In this document: positions 50 through 11,853 of the stretch, one piece after another
Layout of the letters: each line of letters begins with the position of its first letter
Position numbering within the stretch: the first letter of the stretch is position 1
Assembly (NCBI GenBank): GCA_903899015.1
Contig: CAIUHP010000080.1
Coordinates: forward strand, 1-56,932
Reading direction: 5' to 3'
Source: an uncultured Armatimonadota bacterium
Lineage (GTDB): Bacteria; Armatimonadota; Fimbriimonadia; Fimbriimonadales; Fimbriimonadaceae
Length of the DNA: 56,932 nt
The notes under the pieces: model-generated
Database searches by the model: none
What the model saw: the letters and a program-made list of their open reading frames with translations, nothing else
Told to the model about the DNA's origin: nothing
Translations under genes and position numbers: made by a program

Positions 50-137
50 AACGATCACATTCAATTATTGGAGCGATCACTTTCAGTCATCCTAGTGATC
101 ACTTTGGCCCATCTTAGTGATCACTTTCATTAGCCTA
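50..137. repeat. Four 22-bp direct repeats with a GATCACTTT core
   Basis: Four head-to-tail units with an exact 22-bp period start at 50, 72, 94 and 116. Each carries a GATCAC core followed by TTT or ATT: aaCGATCACATT, agCGATCACTTT, agTGATCACTTT, agTGATCACTTT. The last unit runs into the stop codon of the adjacent RHS fragment. Regularly spaced copies of such a motif are typical of transposase-binding sites inside the ends of some insertion sequences, IS21-like ones among them. I infer that an element end lies here with its body to the left of the window. No transposase is visible, so the family call is tentative. Confidence 0.55.
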
Positions 138-835
138 CGCAGCCTAAGTCGAAATACTTGCCCGTGCTGTCTGCGTACTGTGTTGGCACATTCCCACAAT
201 AGACGAACCAGTTGTGTCCCTGGAGCGCCGGATCCTGGCTGACGAACCTTCCGCTTCCAGGCTCGTAATACCTAGCCCGCATGTAAACGAGTCCAGACTC
301 ATCGTCCTGCTTATGCCCTAGATTTGCGCAATATCGCCCTTTCGGATCGCCGGTCGGGGCACCGACTCGAATGTTGCCCCAGGCATCGAAGGTTCTAAGA
401 TTGGCGGGTAGGTAGCCACCTGCACCCTGCTTTGTCAAGGTCGACATCATGTTGCCGTGAGTGTCGTAAATTGGATATACGGCGGTTGTCGTTCCCGACT
501 GCGATACGTACATCGCATCGATGCCACGGGCACCCAGCCCGTAATCGGTGACTTTTTGAACGGCTCCGCCAGAATAGTCGATGTCCTCGATTGACATCTG
601 TCCGTCATAACGATACGACGCGATCGGATTGTGAATCGGATTCGCATTGTCCAATTTCGCGATTCTCATGCCATCGGCACGGTAGGAGTAATTGGTGGTT
701 GAACCACCAACCGTAACGGACGTCATCCGATTGAGGGAATCCCATGTGTAACTGGTGGAACCCATCTACGTTCGATTCCCCAAGATATCACAATTGGTCG
801 CAACACCAGCAACCGATTTTGGGACATCTACAAAA
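130..835 (-). pseudogene. Orphan RHS core fragment (decayed duplicate of the RHS 3' region)
   Basis: The open part (130-765, 211 aa) matches most residues of the RHS-associated core of the large RHS gene at 1138-5364, including YRYDGQM, GYLPANLRTFDAWGNIRVG and VYMRARYYEPGSGRFVS. Homology continues upstream of its first ATG: the codons for SVAGVATNCDILGNRT align with SVSGVVTTSDKLGNRM of the intact gene, but a TAG stop interrupts them just before that ATG. The fragment therefore lacks its own start, signal peptide and repeats. Its variable tip is only about ten residues (KYFDLGCVG) and ends inside the 22-bp repeats. It is best read as a displaced RHS core tip, cut at both ends, that could still serve as a recombination template for the intact gene. 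Confidence 0.75.
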
Positions 836-898: not shown

Positions 899-1138
899 TT
901 AGCGCCACCAACCTCTTCTTCGGCCCCCCCTTAATTTTCGAACTGCCAGATAAATACCGAATGCAGCAAGCGCCTTTAAACCTTCCAGCGCACACACTCT
1001 CGCATTCTGCCCACCCACCCCTTTTACTGTAAACCATGTAAACATTGCTGTTATGGCGATTAAGAGCACCAACATGGCCGTGGCGATGACCGAACCGAAC
1101 CGCATTTGGAACTTTGGGAACAGCACTTTGCGTGTCAT
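899..1138 (-). CDS. Small single-span membrane protein translationally coupled to RHS
   Basis: This 79-aa protein starts at an ATG that overlaps the RHS stop codon (TGATG at 1140-1136). A TTG one codon upstream is an alternative start. It has one long hydrophobic segment (about residues 16-36) and a second weaker one, and ends in a strongly basic tail (RKLRGGRRRGWWR). I recognise no family. Stop/start coupling to the RHS gene and its position right behind the variable RHS tip are where immunity genes of polymorphic toxins normally sit, so a membrane immunity protein is a reasonable guess, but nothing in the sequence proves it. A longer ORF in another frame over the same stretch (882-1163) is taken as a shadow. 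Confidence 0.5.
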   Translation of the reverse strand: MTRKVLFPKFQMRFGSVIATAMLVLLIAITAMFTWFTVKGVGGQNARVCALEGLKALAAFGIYLAVRKLRGGRRRGWWR

Positions 1139-4100
1139 CAATCGCCAGCTCCTTCGGCTTCAAAATTATAAATGCTAAGCAACATATTGTATAGTGACAC
1201 TCCTACCATCGCTGCTGACGCAAGGCCGACTAACCCAACGCAGGCTGCTAACAAGCCAACACCTGGAGCCGCAAACATTGTTATACCGTTGGTAGCAAAA
1301 ACAGCTGATAGGCTCGCCAGAGCGGCTGCGCTATCGAAGCAAAATGCTGCTAGCCCAAGTTCAGCTGACACTTGAAATGTGGCAGTCAATATGAATGAGA
1401 CAAACTCAGCTGACCTAAACCAAGGCGAGCTAACATCGATGCCTTGTTGTTTTAAGAATTTTAGGCAGACTTCTAGTGCTGCGGATGGATCTATCGTTTC
1501 CCTACCAGAGTAGTCGGCGCCTAACACAGGATTGTTTTCACAATAGGCATACCAGTTCTTACTTTTCATGCTCGGATCTTCGCTAACAAACCTCCCGCTT
1601 CCAGGCTCGTAGTATCTGGCTCTCATGTAAACTAGCCCAGACTCATCATCCTCCTTGTGTCCAAGACTAGCACAGTAGCGTCCCTTCGGGTCGGCAGTCT
1701 GGGCACCGACTCGAATATTCCCCCAGGCATCAAAGGTTCTAAGATTCGCCGGCAGATAGCCACCAGTTCCCTGCTTCGTCAAGGTCGAAATCATATTCCC
1801 GTGAGAGTCGTAAAGGGGATACACGGATGTTGTGGCCCCAGATTGGGTCACATACATTATGTCGATTCCACGGGCACCCAACCCGTAATCGGTAACTTTT
1901 TGGACGGTTCCGCCTGAATAATCGATATCCTCGATTCCCATCTGTCCGTCATACCGATACGACGTTGTAGGGTTGTGAACGGGACTAGCATTGTCCAGCT
2001 TAGCGGTCCTCATGCCATCGGCGCGGTAGACGTAATTGGTGGTTACTCCGCTACTGCTTGTGAACGAATTCATGCGGTTTAAAGCATCCCAACTATACGA
2101 CTGGGAACCGTAAGTCATTCGGTTACCCAACTTGTCGGATGTTGTCACCACGCCACTAACCGAAGTCGTTCGGTTTAAATTATCGCAAACCGAATCGGTA
2201 CGATTGCCCGCTGCATCGTAGCTCCAAACCTGATGGGGATTAGCCATGGTATCCCCGTAAGTGGCGGTTGCCAAGTAATCAAGCGATGGTTCGTAAGTAT
2301 AAGTGTCGGTTTGAGCCGGGTTCCAGTTTGGCTGGCCTGGCGTCAGCCTGGTGTAGTAGTGGACATTGGTCTTGAGCCCTCGATTCAAGGTCCCACCGAT
2401 CTCGTAGTCACAAGATTGACCGAGAATGGCTTCTGAGCTATATCCATTGCCCGCTGAGTTCAAAGTGTCCCAATAGTGATACACCGAGAGCATGCGACCA
2501 GCAGGATCGTAAGCGTAATCCGCTCGGGCACGCGTTTGAGCAAGATGTCCATCATAGTAGCCGTTAGCATCCGGTGTGTTGTTGCTCGGCGTTTGGGCAA
2601 ATGCTGCTTCAATTAACTTCCCTGTTGGGTCGTAATGATAGTGGAATTCTTCCGGCGAACGCGTGCCATTTGCGTTCAGCTTGCATAACGTTTGGAATGC
2701 CCAACTTGGCCCTCCTTTCCCAGCAACAAGCTGATAGTCAAAGTAGCCCCACTTTCCAAGCACATTTAGATTGCCATCCTGATATGTCGAAGTAGCGCGG
2801 TTGTTGAAGTCCCCGTATGTGTAGGAAACGACATTATCCTTCAAATTATTTCGATATTCAGTGACGGTTGCCGGCAATCCAACTCCGTTGCCAGATTGCA
2901 CGTAAGCGATTTCCTGTCGCACATTGCAAAGATTATCGATTACCTTCGTGACTTGGCCATTCTCAACACCCGACTGACCGTAGGTGTAGGATGCGATGAC
3001 ACCGACTCCGAGTTGAGTCACACTTTTAACTTTGCCGTCAGGATCGAAGTCAGTCTGAAACTCATGCCCGGCACCATCGACGACGTCATTAGCCTTCCCC
3101 CAACTCGTGTAACCGTTATTCTGGGTGGTTCGGTCAATTCCGCTAGAGTCCTCTTCGACCTTGATTGCCTGACCCCAAGAGTTGTCTGGAGTCGCTGCAT
3201 AGCTTGTCAGAGTTGTGACATACCGATAGGTTGAAGGGACGCCAACCGTTGCGGCTTGAAGTTTTTGAACCGTCGTCGCTCGACCAGCAACGGAATCATA
3301 AGTGAATTGAGCCGAATGTTGACCTGCCGTCGGTTGAATCTGATATCGCCAGGCATCTTGGCTTCTCGTTCCTGCTGGTGGCGCTATTGTCGTGTTAATG
3401 GAAACTCCGCCGTACTTTGCATCCCAGACTTGGTAGGTTTGGCCGCGATTCCCAAGAGAGGCATCGGAAGAATTGTAGTAATCGGTAAACGTTAATCTTC
3501 CGCCTTGATCTTTGGTTGCCTTCTGCTGAAAATACTTGTCGGCTCCCCAGTAGGCATAGGAGTTCGTGGCAGTTCTGGTTGTGTTGAATGAAGTATCAGT
3601 GGAAGCTTCCTGCTGCTCCTGGACCGTAACGTCGAGCGGTTGCCCCCTAAAGTTGTAAGAGTTGAGGGTCACGATTTGCTGTTGGGGCTCTGTTTGGATG
3701 GTGCCGTTGAACCCGAGTAGCCTCTGAACCCAAAGATTGGACGGAAAGGCAGTCCAATAGCCACCATTATTGGCCCAAAGATTTCCGCTGATGGTTTCCG
3801 TGCAGTTTTGTGTGAAAACATCGTAAACCGAGGTTGTAGTGAATGAGTTGTAAGAATCGTATTGGGAACGAAGAGATACGCAGTTTGTACCGACGGTTAA
3901 CGTTGTCCCATTGATCGTAGAGAAACCGGCATAGGCGTATTGAGCAGCCCCGGCATTGTTGAATACTTGTGCGCCTCCGGAAGTTAAGAAATTACTTGGA
4001 TAGGAGACGCCAAAATTGAACTGTGCGTAGGAGCCATCCGGCTGGGTGATTTGGGAGACCGTCACTCCTTCGATGTAAGCGCCATAGGGCAAGACCCCAC

Positions 4101-5364
4101 CAGCGTAGATCTGACTCTGAATGGAGGTTGTCAGGCCACGAGGATCGGTGATTGAACTAAGAATGGGGCCAGAAGCGTCGGTTGAGCCCGGAATATTGTT
4201 AGTTGGGGAGGCGTAGCCATAACTCGTGGTCAACCCGGCAGGTGACTTTACTGAAGCGAGACAGTGTGTGCTCGGATCATACGTGTAGGTGACTACTCTA
4301 TTGTTCCCATTATCTGCAACTGTTGAGACTCGGTTTGCAGGAGCAGTGCCACCCCAAGTTAGGGAGATGGTGTGGCCGTTTGGCATATGGACGCTTGTGA
4401 GCGGATGCTCGCTAGTCTGCCCGTCGATCTTTTGGAACGACACATAACCCGCACCATACGAGTAAATCGTCTGATTCCCGTTGCGATCCGTCGCACTTAC
4501 GATCTTGAGGACGTTAGCGGGCGTGGGAGTCGCGGTTGGATTGCTGTAGGGATAGGTACCGCCGTTTGAGTAGCTGCCTTGGCTTAAATATGTGTAAGTC
4601 GTGCCTTCAGGCGTCGTGACGGTTTGACTGGTCATCACTTGATACACGTTGCCGTTCTGAACGACATTGGTGTAGTTGCTGACGGTTTGGTTCAGGTCCC
4701 AAGCTGGGGGGCTTAGGACACCGTCGGCATCCTTTTGGATCGTCTCTTGCTTGCCGGAAGAATCCTCGGCGGTAACAGCGTCGATCGGTTGGGTCGTGAC
4801 ATTTGGATCGACTTCCTGAGGAGCTCGCTCTTTATACGTCACCGGCACGGACCGGACTGGGGCACCCTTCGACTTCAAAACGCCGCCTGCGGTCGTGCGA
4901 ACGTCCGCGCTGAGGGTCCAGCCAGGACCGAACGGGCCCTCGTTCGCATCGTTGGCGCTGTAGCTACGGGTGATGTTGACCGGAATGCCGTAGCCTCCGT
5001 CAAATGACAAGTCGGTTGCGGAAGTCGAGTAGTTACCGGTAACGAGATCGACCCCCATAAACTGAGGATCCCACTTTGAAGCTCCCGCGAGGTAAGGACA
5101 TTGCGCAGTTCGCCCCTGGAGGCTGCTCAATTCCTTCTCCGTCATGCGACGGGTGTGGCTGACGACCATTCGTCTCGCCAATTCCCTCTCAGCCTTAGCA
5201 CTTTCCTTCATTCTGGTTTCAACCATGTCTCGCAGCGGTTTCCCGACCGCCAGCACAACGCTTTGAGGCATGCATAGATTCACAAGTGCCAAGCAAAGGG
5301 AGATGGAAAGGGATCGGAAAAGTACGGTTCTGGCTTTCATAGCTTTATGCGAAATGGTCCTCAT
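1138..5364 (-). CDS. Secreted RHS/YD-repeat protein with hydrophobic C-terminal tip
   Basis: A 1408-aa protein with an N-terminal signal sequence (from Met1 or Met9; hydrophobic stretch about residues 15-40), a DUF6531-like start region (VDLVTGNYSTSATDLSF), degenerate YD repeats through the middle and an RHS-associated core near residues 1130-1285 (RYDGQM, DAWGNIRVG, DDESGLVYMRARYYEPGSGRF). After the core (NPVLGADYSG) comes a unique tip of about 120 residues that is almost entirely hydrophobic, with several potential membrane helices. RHS proteins build a beta-cocoon shell that carries a variable C-terminal effector; here the effector could be a membrane-active domain. The start overlaps the stop of the C39-peptidase gene (ATGA), and the stop overlaps the next small gene, so it is third in a coupled operon. 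Confidence 0.88.
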   Translation of the reverse strand: MRTISHKAMKARTVLFRSLSISLCLALVNLCMPQSVVLAVGKPLRDMVETRMKESAKAERELARRMVVSHTRRMTEKELSSLQGRTAQCPYLAGASKWDPQFMGVDLVTGNYSTSATDLSFDGGYGIPVNITRSYSANDANEGPFGPGWTLSADVRTTAGGVLKSKGAPVRSVPVTYKERAPQEVDPNVTTQPIDAVTAEDSSGKQETIQKDADGVLSPPAWDLNQTVSNYTNVVQNGNVYQVMTSQTVTTPEGTTYTYLSQGSYSNGGTYPYSNPTATPTPANVLKIVSATDRNGNQTIYSYGAGYVSFQKIDGQTSEHPLTSVHMPNGHTISLTWGGTAPANRVSTVADNGNNRVVTYTYDPSTHCLASVKSPAGLTTSYGYASPTNNIPGSTDASGPILSSITDPRGLTTSIQSQIYAGGVLPYGAYIEGVTVSQITQPDGSYAQFNFGVSYPSNFLTSGGAQVFNNAGAAQYAYAGFSTINGTTLTVGTNCVSLRSQYDSYNSFTTTSVYDVFTQNCTETISGNLWANNGGYWTAFPSNLWVQRLLGFNGTIQTEPQQQIVTLNSYNFRGQPLDVTVQEQQEASTDTSFNTTRTATNSYAYWGADKYFQQKATKDQGGRLTFTDYYNSSDASLGNRGQTYQVWDAKYGGVSINTTIAPPAGTRSQDAWRYQIQPTAGQHSAQFTYDSVAGRATTVQKLQAATVGVPSTYRYVTTLTSYAATPDNSWGQAIKVEEDSSGIDRTTQNNGYTSWGKANDVVDGAGHEFQTDFDPDGKVKSVTQLGVGVIASYTYGQSGVENGQVTKVIDNLCNVRQEIAYVQSGNGVGLPATVTEYRNNLKDNVVSYTYGDFNNRATSTYQDGNLNVLGKWGYFDYQLVAGKGGPSWAFQTLCKLNANGTRSPEEFHYHYDPTGKLIEAAFAQTPSNNTPDANGYYDGHLAQTRARADYAYDPAGRMLSVYHYWDTLNSAGNGYSSEAILGQSCDYEIGGTLNRGLKTNVHYYTRLTPGQPNWNPAQTDTYTYEPSLDYLATATYGDTMANPHQVWSYDAAGNRTDSVCDNLNRTTSVSGVVTTSDKLGNRMTYGSQSYSWDALNRMNSFTSSSGVTTNYVYRADGMRTAKLDNASPVHNPTTSYRYDGQMGIEDIDYSGGTVQKVTDYGLGARGIDIMYVTQSGATTSVYPLYDSHGNMISTLTKQGTGGYLPANLRTFDAWGNIRVGAQTADPKGRYCASLGHKEDDESGLVYMRARYYEPGSGRFVSEDPSMKSKNWYAYCENNPVLGADYSGRETIDPSAALEVCLKFLKQQGIDVSSPWFRSAEFVSFILTATFQVSAELGLAAFCFDSAAALASLSAVFATNGITMFAAPGVGLLAACVGLVGLASAAMVGVSLYNMLLSIYNFEAEGAGD

Positions 5365-6362
5365 AGAGAACCTCGAAGAAGGATGGTGTTGACGAAAAAG
5401 TCGGGGTTGCTGAAATCTGGGATCTTAATGGCTCGCTCGCCACTAACAACCGTGTCGTAAACTCGCATCGAGTCGGACTTCACTTCCAAAAGGGTCACGA
5501 AGTGGTCTCCGATGAGGATGATGGCGGGAGTCTGGATCTTCTCAAGGTCTTGTCGGTTGACCCGGTAGGCAGAGGCATTGACCCCAAGGACTTTGAGGCC
5601 CTTGATCATGCCCTGAACCGTCGTTCCCGAATCGGTGGTGCCGCAGGATTTAGCGATCGATTTGTAATCGCTCGGTGACGATCCAGCTCGGATCGCGCCG
5701 ATTTCGCAAAGATAAGCGAGGGTTTTCGGTCCGCACACTGCGGATTCAAACCGAGTGTTCGCATCCTGTTGCTTCGTGGCCGATTCGATCAAGCGCGTTA
5801 GCTCATCGGTAGTCTTGCCACCGTTGAGCCTGACTAGCCGACGATAACATGCCATACACAGGGCACTGAGTGGCCTCTGCTTGATAAATTGGCGATACTG
5901 CATTTTCGCTTCGTCAACTTTTCCGGAAGCTTCGAGAGTTACGATCGCCTGGTAGGTACCTTGCTCGTTGATGGTGCCGAAAGCGCCTGATTCGCCGGAT
6001 CCTTTGGTTTGGTTAGCGGCTTCCTGAAAGGCTTGGCGTGCCTGACTCCAATTCTTGTCGTGCGCGGCAAGGAACCCGATTTTTAGTCGAGCGGCACCGA
6101 CCTGGTCTTGAATCTTGGGGTTTGGCTTCGTTTCGTACTGATGAATGAAGCTTTGCAACTCTTGCTTTGCTACCTTCGGATGGGCAACGTAATCGTCGTT
6201 TGCTTTTGATGGTTTCGGCGTGTTGTCAATGAGCCTCGGAACAAACGCTCTTGAAACGTGAGCCTCCACATGCTTAGGGCGGGTCGTAAGGAACAAGCCA
6301 CCGATGACTGCAACGACCACAAACCCGCCGCCGATCCAGATCGTTCTTTTGGACAGCTTCAT
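5361..6362 (-). CDS. Membrane-anchored C39-like cysteine peptidase
   Basis: From the ATG at 6362, two bases after the upstream stop, the protein has 333 residues. An N-terminal membrane anchor spans about residues 8-26. A tetratricopeptide-like helical region follows (about 60-180), then a C-terminal papain-like domain resembling peptidase family C39. The probable catalytic residues are Cys210 (AVCGPKTLAYL), His287 (GDHFVTLLEV) and Asp303 (VYDTVVSG). C39 enzymes cut leader peptides of exported proteins, often after double glycine. There is no ABC transporter part here. With the RHS gene overlapping downstream by ATGA and a secreted Gly-rich protein upstream, it may process one of its operon partners. 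A longer reading from 6473 would overlap the upstream gene and is less likely. Confidence 0.72.
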   Translation of the reverse strand: MKLSKRTIWIGGGFVVVAVIGGLFLTTRPKHVEAHVSRAFVPRLIDNTPKPSKANDDYVAHPKVAKQELQSFIHQYETKPNPKIQDQVGAARLKIGFLAAHDKNWSQARQAFQEAANQTKGSGESGAFGTINEQGTYQAIVTLEASGKVDEAKMQYRQFIKQRPLSALCMACYRRLVRLNGGKTTDELTRLIESATKQQDANTRFESAVCGPKTLAYLCEIGAIRAGSSPSDYKSIAKSCGTTDSGTTVQGMIKGLKVLGVNASAYRVNRQDLEKIQTPAIILIGDHFVTLLEVKSDSMRVYDTVVSGERAIKIPDFSNPDFFVNTILLRGSL

Positions 6363-6364
6363 GA

Positions 6365-7894
6365 TTAGTGATCCAACCCGGTGCCGGTGATCACCCACAC
6401 GCGTGGAGCAGCATCGGTATAAGGAAATGCGAGACCCGCTACAGGGAAGCTTGGACCGATGAGCCAATGCCAAAGCGATGTGTTGGAAGAGACGATATTG
6501 GCTTCGCTGTAACCGGCTAGGCAGATCGCAGCACCAGCCGTCGCCGGTATGAATACGATGGTGGAGTAAGACGTTCCACCCTGAGCGTTCGTATATGGGT
6601 AGTCCGTCACGTTTGTAACCACAAAATTGGCATAGCTCCCGATTGCGGTTCCCTGATTGCTACTGCCAGGCGACAAAAGGTTCGTTTGACTTAATGGATC
6701 TTGCGTGTAATCCGGCGGACTTCCAAGCGTCGTTCGCGGATTGATGTTCCATCTGTTTGACCAATTAACCGTACTGGAGGTTGGTGCGCCGGTTGCGCCC
6801 GGCAAATTTGGATCGGTGAGCAATGGACAATAGGCTCCGATAGACAAATCTCCACTTGCATAGCTGGGCACTCCTGCATGAAGAAGGGTGCAAATCATGA
6901 GCGATACCCCGCTCACTTGATTGGCGCCAAGGCCCGGATAAATTTGAATTCGAGAAGTTCCGCTTCGATCACCTTGACTGTTGGTGGCAGCCATGTTGCC
7001 AACGAAAACACCACCTTTGTACACGTTCGTGCTGAAATTCAGATTCCGCCCCGAGGTATTCGCGTCGACGGGAACGGTGTCTGCGTCTGCAAACGCTACT
7101 CGGGAATCGACAGATGAAACCTGAGCGATCTGCTTGACCACTTGGACAGAGATCTTCTGATCGGTCGTCGATCCTGAAATGACGGTCCAATTCACATTGT
7201 CGTTAGAACCCAGGGTCTCTGAGACTTTAAAGAGATGGAGAATGAAGACTCCTGCAGGAAGAGCACCCGTACTGTGCCACTCCAAAGGCAGAGTCGTATT
7301 GGGGTCGAATCGGTAAGCGATGACGTTTGCCCCATCAACGTTAACCACGTCGATGGGGCCGAAGAAGCCGTTGTTACCGCTCGGTCCCTGATTTCCAAAT
7401 CCAATATAGGGACCACCTGAAGTAGTGAGTGGGTCCACACCCACGTAGTAAGCGGATACCGTCTGGGTATAGGTGTATCCGCCGCCGCCTCCACCCGTGC
7501 CACCACCGGTTCCACCCGTTCCACCCGTTCCAGTGCCTGCTCCTCCCGTTGGTGTTGCGATACCTGCCGTTTTGCCGACAACCATGGCTTGGCCACCGCC
7601 CGTTCCGCCGGTACCTCCTGTTCCCCCAGAGCCACCTCCGGAAGTTTGCGGCGTAGTCGTGTATTGCCACAGGAGTTCCAGCGAATGATCGGTAGTTTGG
7701 ACCATGGGGCCAGTAGCTGTGTACTGGCTCCAACTGGTTCGGCTGGCGTACTCCGCACCGGATATTAGCCTGAACTGCATGAAGGGAATTGACGAACTTC
7801 CCTGCTTAGCTGCGCGAGTAGCACCATAGGTACCAGACAATGCGGTACACGTGAGTAGTATCAAGCCCAGTAGGCGGAAGTTAAGGGTGTCCAT
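6365..7894 (-). CDS. Secreted Gly/Thr-rich protein of unknown function
   Basis: A 509-aa reading from the ATG at 7894 begins with a clear signal peptide (FRLLGLILLTCTALSG, then TYGA). An alternative TTG start lies at 7927. Residues about 85-140 form a low-complexity linker of SGGTGGTGG-type repeats, seen in DNA as repeated cca-ccc-gtt triplets. The following part is rich in Thr, Ser, Asn, Gly and aromatic residues and looks like extracellular beta structure. I recognise no enzyme motif. It is the first clear gene of the operon, with only two bases to the C39-peptidase start. The Gly-rich linker contains several Gly-Gly pairs, so it is one candidate substrate for that peptidase, though this is inference. 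Confidence 0.72.
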   Translation of the reverse strand: MDTLNFRLLGLILLTCTALSGTYGATRAAKQGSSSIPFMQFRLISGAEYASRTSWSQYTATGPMVQTTDHSLELLWQYTTTPQTSGGGSGGTGGTGGTGGGQAMVVGKTAGIATPTGGAGTGTGGTGGTGGGTGGGGGGYTYTQTVSAYYVGVDPLTTSGGPYIGFGNQGPSGNNGFFGPIDVVNVDGANVIAYRFDPNTTLPLEWHSTGALPAGVFILHLFKVSETLGSNDNVNWTVISGSTTDQKISVQVVKQIAQVSSVDSRVAFADADTVPVDANTSGRNLNFSTNVYKGGVFVGNMAATNSQGDRSGTSRIQIYPGLGANQVSGVSLMICTLLHAGVPSYASGDLSIGAYCPLLTDPNLPGATGAPTSSTVNWSNRWNINPRTTLGSPPDYTQDPLSQTNLLSPGSSNQGTAIGSYANFVVTNVTDYPYTNAQGGTSYSTIVFIPATAGAAICLAGYSEANIVSSNTSLWHWLIGPSFPVAGLAFPYTDAAPRVWVITGTGLDH

Positions 7895-8064
7895 AATCCT
7901 GCATGAGAATAAGCCACTTCCATACAATACGTACCTGTTAAATATGCTAGATAAGTGTTAACGTTGCATTGGGCTTGGACAGGAAGGATCATATCCGTTA
8001 AACACAAAACCATTTCGAGACTTGCAACCGTAAGGGCTCTTGCTAATGTCTGCTGAACGGGCAT
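7861..8064 (-). CDS. Possible small secreted peptide ahead of the RHS operon
   Basis: An open frame of 95 codons (7861-8148) lies upstream of, and overlaps by 34 nt, the start of the Gly-rich secreted protein. Read from the internal ATG at 8064 it gives 67 residues with a moderately hydrophobic N-terminus ending PVQAQ, followed by a short Tyr-rich stretch with two Cys. The hydrophobic part contains Glu and Asp, which is poor for a signal peptide, and no ribosome-binding site is obvious. It could be a real small exported peptide or chance. Apart from this frame, the 7928-8190 gap holds nothing I can identify. Confidence 0.22.
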   Translation of the reverse strand: MPVQQTLARALTVASLEMVLCLTDMILPVQAQCNVNTYLAYLTGTYCMEVAYSHAGLWTPLTSAYWA

Positions 8065-8192
8065 CCACCAGACCGTGCTCAATCTGCATTCATGGAACGC
8101 CCGGTCTAAGAGATGGTTTCTGGAAAGCTCTCGAATTCTAGCAAGCAATCAGAGGCTCAAAGAGGACAAGTTCTCAAGTTCATTACGCACGA

Positions 8193-8228
8193 AAAAGCGG
8201 CCCGCAGAAAGTTCTGCGGACCGCTTTT
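8193..8228 (-). terminator. Intrinsic terminator of the infC-rpmI-rplT operon
   Basis: The 16-bp arms at 8193-8208 and 8213-8228 enclose a 4-nt loop. The only imperfect position (C opposite A on the plus strand) becomes a U-G pair in the minus-strand transcript, so the RNA stem is continuous only in that direction. It ends in a run of five U (complement of 8192-8196). It lies 13 nt past the rplT stop. Confidence 0.88.
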
Positions 8229-8241
8229 GACAATGGGAAGC

Positions 8242-8598
8242 TCAGGCTAAGCCGGCTTTGGCGAGTGCTACGATTGATTGGAATGCGGGCATATCGGCGA
8301 TGGCCAATTCGCTGAGCATCTTTCGGTTGACTTGAATGCCTTGAGTATTCATGCCGTGAATCAACTGCGAATACTTGATGTCGCAGGAGGTGCAGGCGGC
8401 AGTGATACGAGCAATCCAGAGTCGGCGGAAATCTCGCTTCTTTGCACGGCGGTCTCGGAAGGCATACTGCCCCGACTTCATTACCTGCTCGTGAGCTCTG
8501 CTATAGACGTTCTTCTTACGGCCCCAATAGCCGGACGCCTTTTCGATAATTTTCTTGTGGCGCTTGTGGCGCATTAAGCCACGTTTAACTCGTGCCAT
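8242..8598 (-). CDS. rplT: 50S ribosomal protein L20
   Basis: A 118-aa protein with the full-length L20 pattern: MARVKRG start, RHKKIIEKASGYWGRKKNVY, then FRDRRAKKRDFRRLWIARI and IQVNRKMLSELA. L20 binds 23S rRNA early in large-subunit assembly and in several bacteria represses its own operon by binding a structure in the mRNA. The ATG at 8598 is preceded by GAGGAG at good spacing. It is the last gene of the infC-rpmI-rplT operon, 127 nt after rpmI, and that gap contains a long hairpin that may be a control element. A strong terminator follows. Confidence 0.97.
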   Translation of the reverse strand: MARVKRGLMRHKRHKKIIEKASGYWGRKKNVYSRAHEQVMKSGQYAFRDRRAKKRDFRRLWIARITAACTSCDIKYSQLIHGMNTQGIQVNRKMLSELAIADMPAFQSIVALAKAGLA

Positions 8599-8673
8599 AT
8601 TTCAATACTCCTCGTTTTATAAGTAACCGGGTCCCAGCCATTTGGCGGTAGCGGTAGAGATAGGTCAAGTCAG

Positions 8674-8710
8674 CAACCAACCAGGAGAGTCAAATCATCC
8701 TGATTGATTG
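8674..8710 (-). promoter_or_regulatory. Intercistronic RNA hairpin between rpmI and rplT
   Basis: Arms 8674-8686 and 8698-8710 flank an 11-nt loop. In the minus-strand transcript all 13 positions pair (CAAUCAAUCAGGA with UCCUGGUUGGUUG), two of them as U-G. On the plus strand the same positions are C-A mismatches. The structure therefore forms only in the operon mRNA. It may be an L20 autoregulatory target, an attenuator or an RNase site; there is no U-tract after it. Confidence 0.6.
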
Positions 8711-8725
8711 CCTGCCCGTTTATCT

Positions 8726-8920
8726 TTAGAGAACTAGAAGGCGTCGAACGCGCTTTCTTTCGCCCTTAAAGATTTCGGGCTCCTGCTCAAGCCTCCGCTT
8801 CCGGGAGGCGTTCTTGTGCAGGAACTGGTGGTTGTTGTGCGACTTGCGGCGCGTGATCTTTCCCGTTCCGGTGATCTTGAACCGCTTTGCCGCTGTCTTG
8901 CTTGTTTTGATCTTTGGCAT
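8726..8920 (-). CDS. rpmI: 50S ribosomal protein L35
   Basis: From the ATG at 8920 this is a 64-aa protein starting [14 protein letters not shown], the standard L35 N-terminus, and ending in a basic tail ([13 protein letters not shown]). It belongs to the large ribosomal subunit. The ATG is preceded by GGAAAG at 7-nt spacing. An ATG six codons upstream (8938) is in frame but would give a non-standard start. The first 134 nt of the gene lie inside the 3' end of infC in the +1 frame, so its translation initiation site is within infC coding sequence and should be affected by ribosomes translating infC. Confidence 0.95.
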
Positions 8921-9470
8921 CTTTTTTCTTTCCGGCATTCGGCTTGGGTACGAGCACCATGATCATCATGCGCCCGTCCAATGTCGGTGTTCGCTCAACA
9001 GTAGCGAGTTCCACCACTTGCTCAGCGAAGATTTCTAACTTCTTCTTTCCAAGCTCAGGGTGAGTAATCTCTCTAGCCTTGAACATGCAGGTGACTTTGA
9101 CCTTGTGGCCCTCTTCCAGAAAGCGCGAGGCATTCCGTACGAGGAACTCAAGATCGTGTTCTGCAATCCGTGGACTGATCTTTATACCCTTAACTTCCTG
9201 CTGTTTGCTCTTTTTGTCCTTCCCGAGCTTCCCTTCCAGATACTTGTGCTTACCGTAATCGATAATTCGGCACACTGGCGGTTGCGCGGTAGGAGAGACC
9301 ATGACAAGATCCAGCCCCTCATCTTTTGCCAACGTCAGAGCCTGACGACTCTGCATAATGCCGAGCTGGTCCCCTTCGGGGCCGATCACTCGGATATCTC
9401 TATATTTCAGCACGCGCTGATTAATTTCGGGTCCTGGCTCTGGCCGGGGCGGTCTTCTAAATCCTGCTAT
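8787..9470 (-). CDS. infC: Translation initiation factor IF-3, apparent AUA start, extended C-terminus
   Basis: IF3 homology ([22 protein letters not shown] ... [12 protein letters not shown]-like region ... [13 protein letters not shown]) begins upstream of the first conventional start, a GTG at 9413, which would remove the conserved [10 protein letters not shown] start. Reading back in frame, the only well-placed initiator is ATA at 9470-9468, seven bases after AGAGGTG at 9484-9478. This gives a 227-aa protein starting (M)[13 protein letters not shown]3 genes often use rare start codons (AUU in E. coli) because IF3 rejects them, which makes the gene self-limiting. The C-terminus continues about 45 residues beyond the usual end, rich in Lys, Gln and Pro, through the rpmI start. 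A sigma70-type promoter lies just upstream. Confidence 0.85.
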
Positions 9471-9511
9471 GTTCGTTCACCTCTATTGCCGATATTCTTG
9501 ACAACCTCATA

Positions 9512-9540
9512 AGTATATCGTAGGTTCAAATGCCAGTCAA
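9512..9540 (-). promoter_or_regulatory. Sigma70-type promoter of the infC operon
   Basis: The minus strand reads TTGACT (9540-9535), a 17-bp spacer, then TATACT (9517-9512), which is close to the housekeeping consensus with ideal spacing. The predicted transcript start near 9505 gives a leader of about 35 nt before the ATA start codon of infC, too short for a large leader structure. Confidence 0.7.
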
Positions 9541-9678
9541 ACAGGAAGATGCAACTTATCGCCAAGATTAGGCCTATAAAAAGAAATATCTTGACGCACG
9601 TGGGCTCAATTTGACCTGAATGGGTAACCTCGGAGCCCAGTTGCCTCGGATGAGAAAGAACTGTAAAAAAGGTTTTCT

Positions 9679-11853
9679 ATGTCGGATCTAAGACTAATTA
9701 GGAAGGTTTGTGTGATTGGAGCCGGCACGATGGGCAGTGGAATTGCCGCACACCTGGCCAATCTGGGTTTTGAGGTTACTCTCCTCGATGCAACACAACA
9801 AAGTGTTATCGAAGGCTTTGAACGGGCAAAGGTTGCCAAGCCGCCCCACTTTTATCTTTCTGAAACAGCACTTGATATCCGTCTGGGCAATACCGCCGAG
9901 AATCTGAGTTGGATTGCGGAGGCCGATTGGGTTTGTGAAGCAATCGTAGAGCGGATGAGTGCCAAACGATCCCTTTTCGCTCGAATTGAAAGCGTCATTC
10001 GGCCAGATGCACTAATTAGCACCAATACCAGCGGCCTACAGATTTCTCTGTTATCAGAAGGTATGTCCGAGAGCTTTAGGCGGCGATTTGTAGGGACTCA
10101 CTTTTTTAATCCACCGCGATACCTCAAATTGCTCGAACTCATCCCGACTCCCGACACGGATCCGGTGATGCTTGCAGAATTTAATCAGATTCTGGAGAGC
10201 AGCGTTGCTAGAAGAGTCGTCACCGCAAGAGATACGCCCGGATTCATCACCAATCGATACGGAATGTGGTGCATGTACCAAGCCGTTCATGCGGCGGAAA
10301 AGCTTCACTTAAGTGTCGAGCAGGTGGACGCAATCACGGGGCCTTTCCTTGGTCGCCCAAAGAGCGCAAGTTTCCGCCTCAACGATATTGTTGGCTTGGA
10401 CGTCATGAATGACATCGCCTCCAATTTGATCGAACGGTGCCCGTCCGATCCATTTATTCAAACATTGCGGACGCCCAAGTCTATTAACACCCTTCTCGAA
10501 CGCAATTGGATCGGAGAAAAGAGTGGGCAGGGTTACTACCGGCGTGAAGGTCGCGAATTCCTCGTTTTTGACTTATCAACTCTTGCCTATCGGCAACGGA
10601 TCGAGCCCGATCTTCCTGCAATCAATCAGCTAGGATCTTTGCCCCTTCCAGAGCGAATTGCCAGAGGACTTGAGCTTAAAGATGAGACAGGAGAATTCCT
10701 GCGCCACTACCTTCTTCCTTCTTTGCGATATGCCGATTACCTCAAGGAGGAAGTCAGTCATGGTGTTCAAGACTTTGACAACGTCATGCAGTGGGGCTTC
10801 GGTTGGCAGATGGGACCGTTTGCAACTTTAGACGCAATCGGAGCGGATAAGGCTGGAATTCCGTCAACCCGCTACTATATCAACGACACCGCCCGAAACT
10901 TCGACGGAACTTACTCTCCGATTAAAAAAGCGGCAGAGTATGCCCAGCTAACGGACTATCCAGTCATCGATCAGGCTTCAACTTACAACGTCCGTGACCT
11001 AGGAGATGGAGTCAAAGCCGTTTGTTTGACAACGAAGATGGGTGTGATCTCCCCACAAACAGTTGAGGAGCTGATTGCACTTATCGAAAAGGGGACGCTC
11101 GATCGTTTTGTCTTTACCAGCGAGGCAAGATCCTTCTCTGCAGGATTTGATCTGAAATTCTTTGCCAAAGCCATTCCAGAAGAAAGATGGATCGATATTG
11201 ATCAAGCATTGGCCCGTCTTCAATATCTCGGCGAATTACTCGAAAAATCGCGAGTAGTCGCGGCGATCTTCGGTCACGCATTAGGAGCTGGTCTTGAACT
11301 CTCGCTTTCGTGTCCAAAGATCGTGTCGCTCGTGGAAACTCAGATTGGACTCCCCGAGTCGAGGATTGGCCTGATTCCCGGTGGTCGGGGCGTGACCCTC
11401 ATGCGCCTGTACAACCAATCAAGCGCGAAGCGCTTGTCGGAAGTCGCCTTCACACTTGCACTTGGAACGGTTGCGCCAAATTCAGAGGAAGCGCGCTCGT
11501 TGGGTTACCTTCGATCCACTGATCTAACGGTTTTCCATCCTGATAAATTGATATTTGAAGCCAAGAGAGCGGCTCTGAAAGTTGAGCCGACTGCCCGACC
11601 GGAAGTGAGCACCGCTGTGGGACCTCTCAGTGGAATGATTGACCGTTTGCTCGAATCGTCTTTGTCACGTGGGGACTTCTCCAAATACGACGAACAGTTG
11701 GGACAAAAGATGAAGTTGATATTCTCCAAAGCTCAAACATATGAAGAGTGTTTGACGAAAGAGCGCAATGAATTTTTGGATCTTTGCACCAAGGCGCTCA
11801 CAGTTGCTCGAATCAACCACATGCTTGAGAACGGAAAACCACTTCGGAACTAG
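9679..11853 (+). CDS. 3-hydroxyacyl-CoA dehydrogenase / enoyl-CoA hydratase (FadN type)
   Basis: A 724-aa two-domain enzyme. Residues 1-300 form the NAD-dependent 3-hydroxyacyl-CoA dehydrogenase: dinucleotide site IGAGTMGSG at 13-21 and catalytic His141 in GTHFFNPPRYLKL. A C-terminal dehydrogenase segment follows, then an enoyl-CoA hydratase/isomerase domain from about residue 435. Both glutamates expected for hydratase activity are visible, in GHALGAGLELSL and LPESRIGLIPGG. The order dehydrogenase-then-hydratase matches the FadN type, not E. coli FadB. It catalyses the middle two steps of beta-oxidation in the cytoplasm. etfB and etfA follow 50 nt downstream and would take electrons from the acyl-CoA dehydrogenase step. 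No thiolase or acyl-CoA dehydrogenase is present in the window. Confidence 0.9.
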   Translation: MSDLRLIRKVCVIGAGTMGSGIAAHLANLGFEVTLLDATQQSVIEGFERAKVAKPPHFYLSETALDIRLGNTAENLSWIAEADWVCEAIVERMSAKRSLFARIESVIRPDALISTNTSGLQISLLSEGMSESFRRRFVGTHFFNPPRYLKLLELIPTPDTDPVMLAEFNQILESSVARRVVTARDTPGFITNRYGMWCMYQAVHAAEKLHLSVEQVDAITGPFLGRPKSASFRLNDIVGLDVMNDIASNLIERCPSDPFIQTLRTPKSINTLLERNWIGEKSGQGYYRREGREFLVFDLSTLAYRQRIEPDLPAINQLGSLPLPERIARGLELKDETGEFLRHYLLPSLRYADYLKEEVSHGVQDFDNVMQWGFGWQMGPFATLDAIGADKAGIPSTRYYINDTARNFDGTYSPIKKAAEYAQLTDYPVIDQASTYNVRDLGDGVKAVCLTTKMGVISPQTVEELIALIEKGTLDRFVFTSEARSFSAGFDLKFFAKAIPEERWIDIDQALARLQYLGELLEKSRVVAAIFGHALGAGLELSLSCPKIVSLVETQIGLPESRIGLIPGGRGVTLMRLYNQSSAKRLSEVAFTLALGTVAPNSEEARSLGYLRSTDLTVFHPDKLIFEAKRAALKVEPTARPEVSTAVGPLSGMIDRLLESSLSRGDFSKYDEQLGQKMKLIFSKAQTYEECLTKERNEFLDLCTKALTVARINHMLENGKPLRN

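What the first reader, a model, noticed from the sequence alone, without database searches (positions are those of the whole stretch)
899..7894. Coupled operon of secreted Gly-rich protein, C39-like peptidase, RHS protein and small membrane protein
Four genes are tied by 2-nt spacing, an ATGA overlap and a TGATG overlap. C39 peptidases normally belong to ABC exporters of double-glycine peptides; here the domain is membrane-anchored, has no transporter and is followed by an RHS protein. The peptidase could cleave the RHS effector or the Gly-rich secreted protein on the outer side of the membrane. I do not know of a described system with this composition, which makes it the best candidate for an undescribed system in the window.
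Basis: partly seen in the sequence, partly recalled or inferred. Interest (0 to 1): 0.7.

Follow-up and report, generated by a model that had tools for sequence, protein, structure and literature searches.

The report
RHS toxin with its own peptidase
In Armatimonadota bacteria, a giant RHS-type (probably bacteria-killing) secreted protein is made together with its own membrane-bound C39 cutting enzyme and carries the kind of cutting mark that such enzymes normally use on small antibiotic peptides, so two known toxin pathways appear to have been joined in a way I found no description of.

Summary
In detail: minus-strand genes 7894-6365 (secreted), 6362-5361 (membrane-anchored TPR-C39), 5364-1138 (RHS), 1138-899 (small membrane protein), junctions as described. 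It is a conserved unit: order secreted protein, TPR-C39, RHS, small gene, orphan RHS tips recurs in many Armatimonadota genera, with the Cys-His-Asp triad intact in 32 of 32 C39 proteins with all three columns aligned. The best explanation is an RHS polymorphic-toxin locus whose C39 peptidase cuts the RHS protein. Decisive clue: between signal peptide and DUF6531, the RHS proteins carry a double-glycine-leader-type site (L-12, S/T-11, E-8, M/L-7, L/I-4, G-2, mostly R/K-1; window residues 74-85, MTEKELSSLQGR). It was found in 29 of 29 (0.14 expected by shuffling), in 0 of 18 (strict) or 1 of 18 (loose) unlinked RHS of the genus, and as a true GG just behind the C39 domain in four natural C39-RHS fusions. 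Tips and downstream genes match in membrane character (22/22 and 7/7), as expected for toxin-immunity pairs. The Gly-rich protein's family has a DNRLRE/CBM96-type domain and no such site. Cleavage, R/K specificity and toxicity are inferred, not shown. New variant of a known kind.

The parts
6365..7894 (-). Secreted partner protein (509 aa): Sec signal peptide, Gly-rich linker, C-terminal conserved domain (GGxFVGNM ... WxW ... PRxW); family member of a DNRLRE/CBM96-type protein
   Evidence: ORF; homologues in the same position in linked loci; transitive DNRLRE/CBM96 match through L112/L113/L114. The window protein itself has no Pfam or NCBIfam hit.
5361..6362 (-). Membrane-anchored TPR-C39 peptidase (333 aa); TM residues about 7-26, TPR domain about 45-200, C39 domain about 207-331
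   Evidence: Pfam C39 E 5e-11; AF2 model pLDDT 79.8; C39 part Z 12.6 to 6mpz (LahT150 with leader peptide), TPR part Z 13.9 to YbgF
5733..5735 (-). Codon of catalytic Cys210
   Evidence: invariant in 32/32
5502..5504 (-). Codon of catalytic His287
   Evidence: invariant in 32/32
5454..5456 (-). Codon of catalytic Asp303
   Evidence: invariant in 32/32
1138..5364 (-). RHS protein (1408 aa) with N-terminal Sec signal, C39-type site, DUF6531, RHS repeats, RHS core and variable tip
5110..5145 (-). Predicted C39 recognition and cleavage site, RHS residues 74-85 MTEKELSSLQGR; expected cut after Arg85
   Evidence: 29/29 of the clade, 0.14 expected in shuffles; loose 1/18 and strict 0/18 in unlinked RHS; four related sites in further genomes
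4894..5052 (-). DUF6531 (start of the RHS body)
   Evidence: Pfam PF20148
1504..1731 (-). Rhs_assc_core, end of the conserved RHS cage
   Evidence: TIGR03696 E 8e-17
1141..1500 (-). Variable hydrophobic C-terminal tip (120 aa), putative membrane-acting toxin domain
   Evidence: two hydrophobic segments, max Kyte-Doolittle 2.28; no Pfam or NCBIfam family
899..1138 (-). Small membrane protein (79 aa from ATG), putative immunity protein, coupled by TGATG
   Evidence: two hydrophobic segments, max 2.34; membrane character matches the tip in 29 pairs
130..765 (-). Orphan RHS C-terminal fragment (211 aa), first of a probable array of displaced tips, cut by the contig end
   Evidence: Rhs_assc_core E 6e-17; 76% identical to the RHS core end

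Best explanation
This is an RHS polymorphic-toxin locus with a dedicated trans-acting processing peptidase. Steps and their status: (1) The RHS protein and the secreted partner are exported by Sec; the TPR-C39 protein stays anchored in the inner membrane with TPR and C39 domains outside the cytosol (inferred from signal/TM sequences and the YbgF-like TPR; topology not tested). (2) The C39 domain binds a helix in the RHS leader that imitates the leader of double-glycine bacteriocins (L-12, E-8, M/L-7, L/I-4) and cuts after the G-R/K pair, here after Arg85, removing the signal/linker and freeing the RHS cage (strong comparative evidence; cleavage itself not shown). (3) The freed RHS cage, possibly shown or attached at the cell surface with help of the DNRLRE-type partner, delivers its variable tip to neighbouring cells (inferred from the RHS class). 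(4) The tip is usually a membrane-acting toxin, and the small gene directly behind it is its immunity protein (supported by tip/neighbour co-variation; toxicity not shown). (5) Orphan tip-plus-small-gene units downstream are a reservoir for tip exchange (known for RHS systems; inferred here).
For: Conserved gene order over many genera. Triad in 32/32. Leader-type site in 29/29 RHS of the clade: 9/9 in the genus where it was first seen, then 20/20 in other genera (11 by the strict pattern), against 0.14 expected in shuffles and 1/18 loose, 0/18 strict in unlinked RHS of the same genus. Positions -12, -8, -7 and -4 are those required by characterised C39 peptidases (PMC6363468). Further genomes have GK, GS, GA and AS versions. 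In four natural single-chain C39-RHS proteins a canonical GG site lies just behind the C39 domain: LSQQELASAWGG, ISAQEMKLVWGG, LSMADLENAWGG, LSPEELRNAWGG; in two of these C39 and DUF6531/RHS were confirmed by Pfam. Genome co-occurrence 28/30 against 4/261, Fisher 2e-32. C39 and RHS distances correlate, Mantel r 0.77, 0/5000 permutations. C39 fold closest to LahT150 and PCAT1. Tip/neighbour membrane character: 22/22 and 7/7, Fisher 6e-7 at the best of several cut-offs, Spearman 0.68.
Against: Position -1 is Arg or Lys in 27 of 33 sites, whereas known C39 peptidases need Gly, Ala or Ser there, so either the specificity has shifted or the cut lies elsewhere. The Gln at -6 of the catalytic Cys is R/K or other here. 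None of 34 tips matches a known toxin family. Linked and unlinked RHS proteins are different clades, so the site could be a clade trait not tied to C39. The site pattern was first seen by eye. Fisher and shuffle values do not correct for common descent. One RHS gene (G016:C42) has the site but no C39 next to it, though the genome has one elsewhere.
Confidence: 0.68

Rival explanations
1. The C39 domain binds the RHS leader as a chaperone or docking site, like the C39-like domain of HlyB, and does not cut it; release is by signal peptidase or by the RHS protein itself.
For: The P1 residue is mostly Arg/Lys, unsuited to known C39 peptidases; the -6 Gln is not kept; recognition of the -12/-8/-7/-4 helix is separate from the cutting site (PMC6363468).
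Against: Cys, His and Asp are kept in 32/32, whereas C39-like domains lose the Cys; fused and distant forms have GG, GA and GS sites.
Confidence: 0.15
2. The peptidase matures the Gly-rich secreted partner (or both partners), and the RHS protein is only co-expressed.
For: The partner lies directly upstream in the same operon and is Gly-rich; FapD is a periplasmic C39 enzyme needed for secretion of operon partners (PMC5557850).
Against: No leader-type site shared by 22 partner proteins, while RHS has it throughout; the C39 domain is fused to RHS, not to the partner, in natural fusions.
Confidence: 0.1
3. RHS proteins here are structural cell-surface proteins with hydrophobic C-terminal anchors, not toxins; the small downstream membrane proteins help to insert them.
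For: Most tips are hydrophobic and match no toxin family.
Against: Tips are mutually unrelated (6 of 561 pairs at E<1e-3), some are soluble, and the neighbour then is soluble too; orphan tip arrays as in RHS toxin loci; a relative with DUF6531, RHS, a known toxin tip (Ntox21) and a neighbouring DUF3885 gene exists in Priestia.
Confidence: 0.12
4. Chance or annotation artefact: unrelated genes that happen to be adjacent.
For: None beyond the weak Pfam scores of single genes.
Against: Same order in loci of many genera and several families, co-occurrence 28/30.
Confidence: 0.01

Closest known systems
RHS polymorphic toxins exported by Sec (WapA type; Zhang et al. 2012, PMC3482391)
   Same: Signal peptide, DUF6531, RHS repeats, Rhs core, variable C-terminal tip, small gene behind it, orphan tips; DNRLRE domain occurs in the family (Priestia)
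   Different: Processing peptidase and DNRLRE-type domain are separate genes; a double-glycine-leader-type site lies in front of DUF6531; tips are of no known toxin family and mostly membrane-type
C39 domains of ABC exporters (PCAT1, ComA, LahT)
   Same: C39 fold (Z about 12.5), Cys-His-Asp triad, substrate helix with L-12, E-8, L-7, V/L/I-4 and small residue at -2
   Different: No ABC or permease part; membrane-anchored TPR protein; substrate is a 1400-aa Sec-type protein; P1 mostly Arg/Lys; -6 Gln not kept
FapD of the Pseudomonas functional amyloid system (PMC5557850)
   Same: C39 peptidase without ABC part, exported by Sec, in an operon with secreted proteins; weak NCBIfam FapD match (E 3e-5)
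   Different: No Fap proteins, no FapF-type barrel identified; has a TPR domain; substrate predicted to be RHS with a definite site, whereas the FapD substrate was unknown in that paper
Tox-PL-C39 and other papain-like domains in polymorphic toxins (PMC3482391)
   Same: C39-type domain in an RHS toxin setting; papain-like releasing peptidases are known inside toxin chains
   Different: Tox-PL-C39 was described as a toxin tip; here C39 is a separate gene or lies N-terminal to RHS with a processing site

Membership tests
RHS polymorphic toxin | DUF6531/RHS repeats ending in Rhs-associated core | tested here: met
RHS polymorphic toxin | Variable C-terminal tips after a conserved core | tested here: met
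   34 tips of 93-143 aa, 6 pairs similar at E<1e-3
RHS polymorphic toxin | Small gene directly behind the tip that matches it (immunity) | tested here: met
   29 pairs matched in membrane character; immunity function not testable
RHS polymorphic toxin | Displaced orphan tips downstream | tested here: met
   window 130-765; L004, L098, L101 and others
RHS polymorphic toxin | Tip belongs to a known toxin family | tested here: not met
   0 of 34 tips with a credible match in Pfam or NCBIfam; not a required feature of the class
RHS polymorphic toxin | Toxicity neutralised by the cognate immunity gene | not testable with these tools
   needs expression
Peptidase family C39 | C39 fold and profile match | tested here: met
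   Pfam E 5e-11; 6mpz/PCAT1/ComA Z about 12.5
Peptidase family C39 | Cys-His-Asp triad | tested here: met
   32/32
Peptidase family C39 | Gln six residues before the catalytic Cys | tested here: not met
   R/K/A and others at that position; PMC6363468 places this Gln 4.3 A from the oxyanion oxygen, so its need is uncertain
Peptidase family C39 | Substrate with double-glycine-type leader (L-12, E-8, L-7, V/L/I-4, G-2, G/A/S-1) | tested here: inconclusive
   all positions but -1 met in RHS; -1 is R/K in most, A/S/Q in some, G in fused forms
Double-glycine ABC exporter (T1SS/PCAT) | Transporter and ATPase domains joined to or beside C39 | tested here: not met
   no such domain in the protein and none in the window operon
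FapD / Fap system | NCBIfam FapD equivalog cut-off | tested here: not met
   23 bits against a cut-off of 330
FapD / Fap system | Periplasmic location of the C39 enzyme | not testable with these tools
   N-terminal TM and YbgF-like TPR suggest it
DNRLRE/CBM96 domain protein (secreted partner) | Profile match | tested here: inconclusive
   window protein none; homologue L112 above the NCBIfam and Pfam cut-offs, L113 above Pfam's, L114 below cut-off, same region as the family profile

The most novel reading that the evidence does not exclude
A phylum-wide three-gene toxin delivery module in which the leader-recognition and cutting system of small double-glycine bacteriocins has been moved outside the cytosol, freed from ABC transporters and adapted to release a giant RHS toxin, with a changed P1 preference (Arg/Lys) and a separate DNRLRE-type surface partner.
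Probability: 0.45. Interest if true: 0.75.

Novelty: new variant of a known kind. Interest (0 to 1): 0.63.

Why it matters
How Sec-exported RHS toxins are freed from the producing cell is poorly understood. This locus gives a concrete, conserved enzyme, a conserved site, natural single-chain and split forms, and a one-residue prediction (cut after Arg85) that can be tested directly. It also suggests that C39 peptidases work more widely without ABC transporters, which bears on FapD, whose substrate was open in the paper read here. It points to a family of small, mostly membrane-type tip/neighbour pairs without any known family.

Tried and rejected
The AF2 model of the secreted partner was too poor to use (mean pLDDT 39.6), so no fold search was made with it; its domain came from sequence only. 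A scan of viral contigs for the C39 protein found no relative and plasmids none, so phage or plasmid origin has no support. A plasmid search with the fused C39-RHS segment hit either ABC exporters (C39 part) or RHS proteins (DUF6531 part), no fusion covering 80% of the query. Two further C39 hits in the own genome and genus (G000:C85, G012:C84) were dropped: different context. Fused proteins L132-L136 and L141 carry C39-like and RHS-like parts but no leader-type site by my patterns; the fused evidence rests on four proteins of two genomes. A match MSLDELSRSWGG in L140 lies at the end of the C39 domain itself and was not counted. Literature searches for C39 plus RHS, double-glycine plus RHS, and Armatimonadetes plus RHS repeat gave no description of such a system; the held library lacks most subscription journals.
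Full report
What is there. The four genes lie on the minus strand as described: a secreted Gly-rich protein (7894-6365), 2 nt, a membrane-anchored TPR-C39 protein (6362-5361), ATGA overlap, a 1408-aa RHS protein (5364-1138), TGATG overlap, a small membrane protein (1138-899). Pfam and NCBIfam confirm C39 (E 5e-11), DUF6531 (E 2e-11) and Rhs_assc_core (E 8e-17); the Gly-rich and small proteins match nothing significant. An orphan RHS end follows at 765-130, and the contig stops there. The genome (4.9 Mb, 119 contigs) has a second copy on contig C102 with several orphan tips behind it. The nearest named relatives in genome contigs are uncultured Armatimonadetes.

Conservation. In the genus, 6 of 20 genomes have a match to the C39 protein at E<=1e-3. 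Five of them (including the own genome) carry the arrangement at eight loci, seven with the RHS gene readable next to it and one at a contig end; the sixth hit (G012) is an unrelated context. Across 291 genomes of the phylum the C39 profile finds related proteins in many families, and the fetched neighbourhoods show secreted protein, TPR-C39, RHS in that order in genus after genus. In more distant families the first gene is longer and Ig-like, but most of these still share the conserved end domain of the partner. Of 30 genomes with this RHS clade, 28 have a C39 relative at E<=1e-13; of 261 others only 4 do. The two exceptions: G073 has a weaker C39 hit, and G146 has an RHS gene with a broken N-terminus, no site and no C39. 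C39 and RHS distances correlate (Mantel r 0.77).

The peptidase. C210, H287 and D303 are kept in all 32 C39 proteins whose three columns align. The predicted structure (mean pLDDT 79.8) has an N-terminal helix, a TPR domain closest to periplasmic YbgF (Z 13.9) and a C39 domain that matches LahT150 with bound leader, PCAT1 and ComA (Z about 12.5, 113-115 residues). The Gln six residues before the Cys is not kept; in LahT150 that Gln is 4.3 A from the oxyanion (PMC6363468), so its loss is not decisive.

The site. Reading the RHS N-termini of linked loci showed one short conserved motif in an otherwise variable stretch between signal peptide and DUF6531. In 29 proteins (27 with the C39 gene next door, one at a contig edge, one alone) the residues are L/M at -12 (29/29), S/T at -11 (24), E at -8 (23), M/L at -7 (27), L/I at -4 (23), G at -2 (29), R/K at -1 (26). 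The nine genus members gave the idea; the 20 from other genera all match too. Shuffling the same stretches gives 0.14 expected matches over the 29. In 18 unlinked DUF6531 RHS proteins of the same genus one loose and no strict match occurs. Four more sites in further genomes read LTKKEMDALAGK, LSEKELAHLRAS, LSAKEMQGLVGS and LTNAEMGRLMGA, the last two being classical GS and GA types. Characterised C39 peptidases recognise L-12, E-8, L-7 and V/L/I-4 before GG, GA or GS (PMC6363468). The register is therefore that of a double-glycine leader.

Fused forms. Some Armatimonadota have signal, TPR, C39 and RHS in one chain. In four of them (L124 twice, L125, L137) a canonical leader site with a true GG lies just behind C39 and before DUF6531; Pfam confirms C39, DUF6531 and RHS repeats in the two chains scanned (L124 second copy, L137). 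The split and fused forms thus place the same site at the same point of the RHS chain, which argues that the RHS protein is the substrate.

Tip and neighbour. The ends after the Rhs core are 93-143 aa, mutually unrelated for the most part (6 similar pairs among 34 tips), and without family matches. In 29 pairs, hydrophobic tips have a hydrophobic small neighbour (22/22) and soluble tips a soluble one (7/7) at cut-offs 1.55 and 1.7; the other cut-offs tried give one to four mismatches, all borderline, and P from 1e-3 to 1.5e-5; Spearman 0.68, P 5e-5. For one pair (L109) I took the hydrophobic of two candidate neighbour frames. This is what toxin and immunity protein that act at the same place would show.

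The secreted partner. Its homologues share an end domain; L112 scores above the NCBIfam DNRLRE cut-off, L112 and L113 above the Pfam CBM96 cut-off, and the match covers the conserved region of the family. A Priestia DUF6531-RHS protein with an Ntox21 tip is annotated as DNRLRE protein. So the partner may supply in trans a surface or glycan-binding part that other RHS toxins carry in one chain (inference). No leader-type site is shared by the partners, which speaks against them as C39 substrates.

Mechanism. I commit to: Sec export, cutting of the RHS leader by the membrane-anchored C39 enzyme, release of the RHS cage, delivery of a mostly membrane-acting tip, protection by the small gene. Shown by comparison: conserved unit, intact triad, conserved site, natural fusions, tip/neighbour match. 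Inferred: topology, the actual cut, the R/K tolerance, delivery, toxicity, immunity.

Comparison with known systems. The class is RHS polymorphic toxins (PMC3482391), where papain-like releasing peptidases inside the chain and Tox-PL-C39 as toxin tip are described, but in the passages I read not a separate C39 gene with a leader-type site. The closest functional precedent is FapD, a C39 peptidase active in the periplasm and needed for secretion, substrate open at the time (PMC5557850). I found no paper on C39 with RHS in this sense. I file it as a new variant of a known kind.

Noticed in passing
window 130-765: Orphan RHS C-terminal fragment whose tip after the core is only 8 aa long; the contig (C80) ends just beyond it, probably because of repeated RHS tips.
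   Followed up: partly
L004 (own genome C102) 7553-11645: Array of at least three displaced RHS ends behind a second, 44% identical copy of the RHS gene, at least two with a small gene of their own.
   Followed up: partly
L124, L125, L137: Single-chain TPR-C39-RHS proteins with a true GG leader-type site directly behind the C39 domain, in two genomes of the phylum.
   Followed up: yes
L132, L133, L135, L136, L141: Another group of large C39-like plus RHS-like fusions (several with a CGA motif) without a recognisable leader-type site; how or whether they are processed is unclear.
   Followed up: partly
L142, L143, L145: Exported C39 proteins followed in the same chain by a domain that looks like DUF1573 (by eye); yet another non-ABC setting for C39 in this phylum.
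   Followed up: no
G016:C42 (L069) 9215: RHS gene with the leader-type site but no C39 gene beside it, in a genome that has the full locus elsewhere; suggests action in trans between loci.
   Followed up: partly
L029 8361-10708: An IS21-like transposase pair (by eye) inserted into an orphan RHS region.
   Followed up: no
window 8192-8227: Near-perfect hairpin read by eye between the rplT gene and this operon, likely a terminator that separates the two; not listed by the terminator scan.
   Followed up: no
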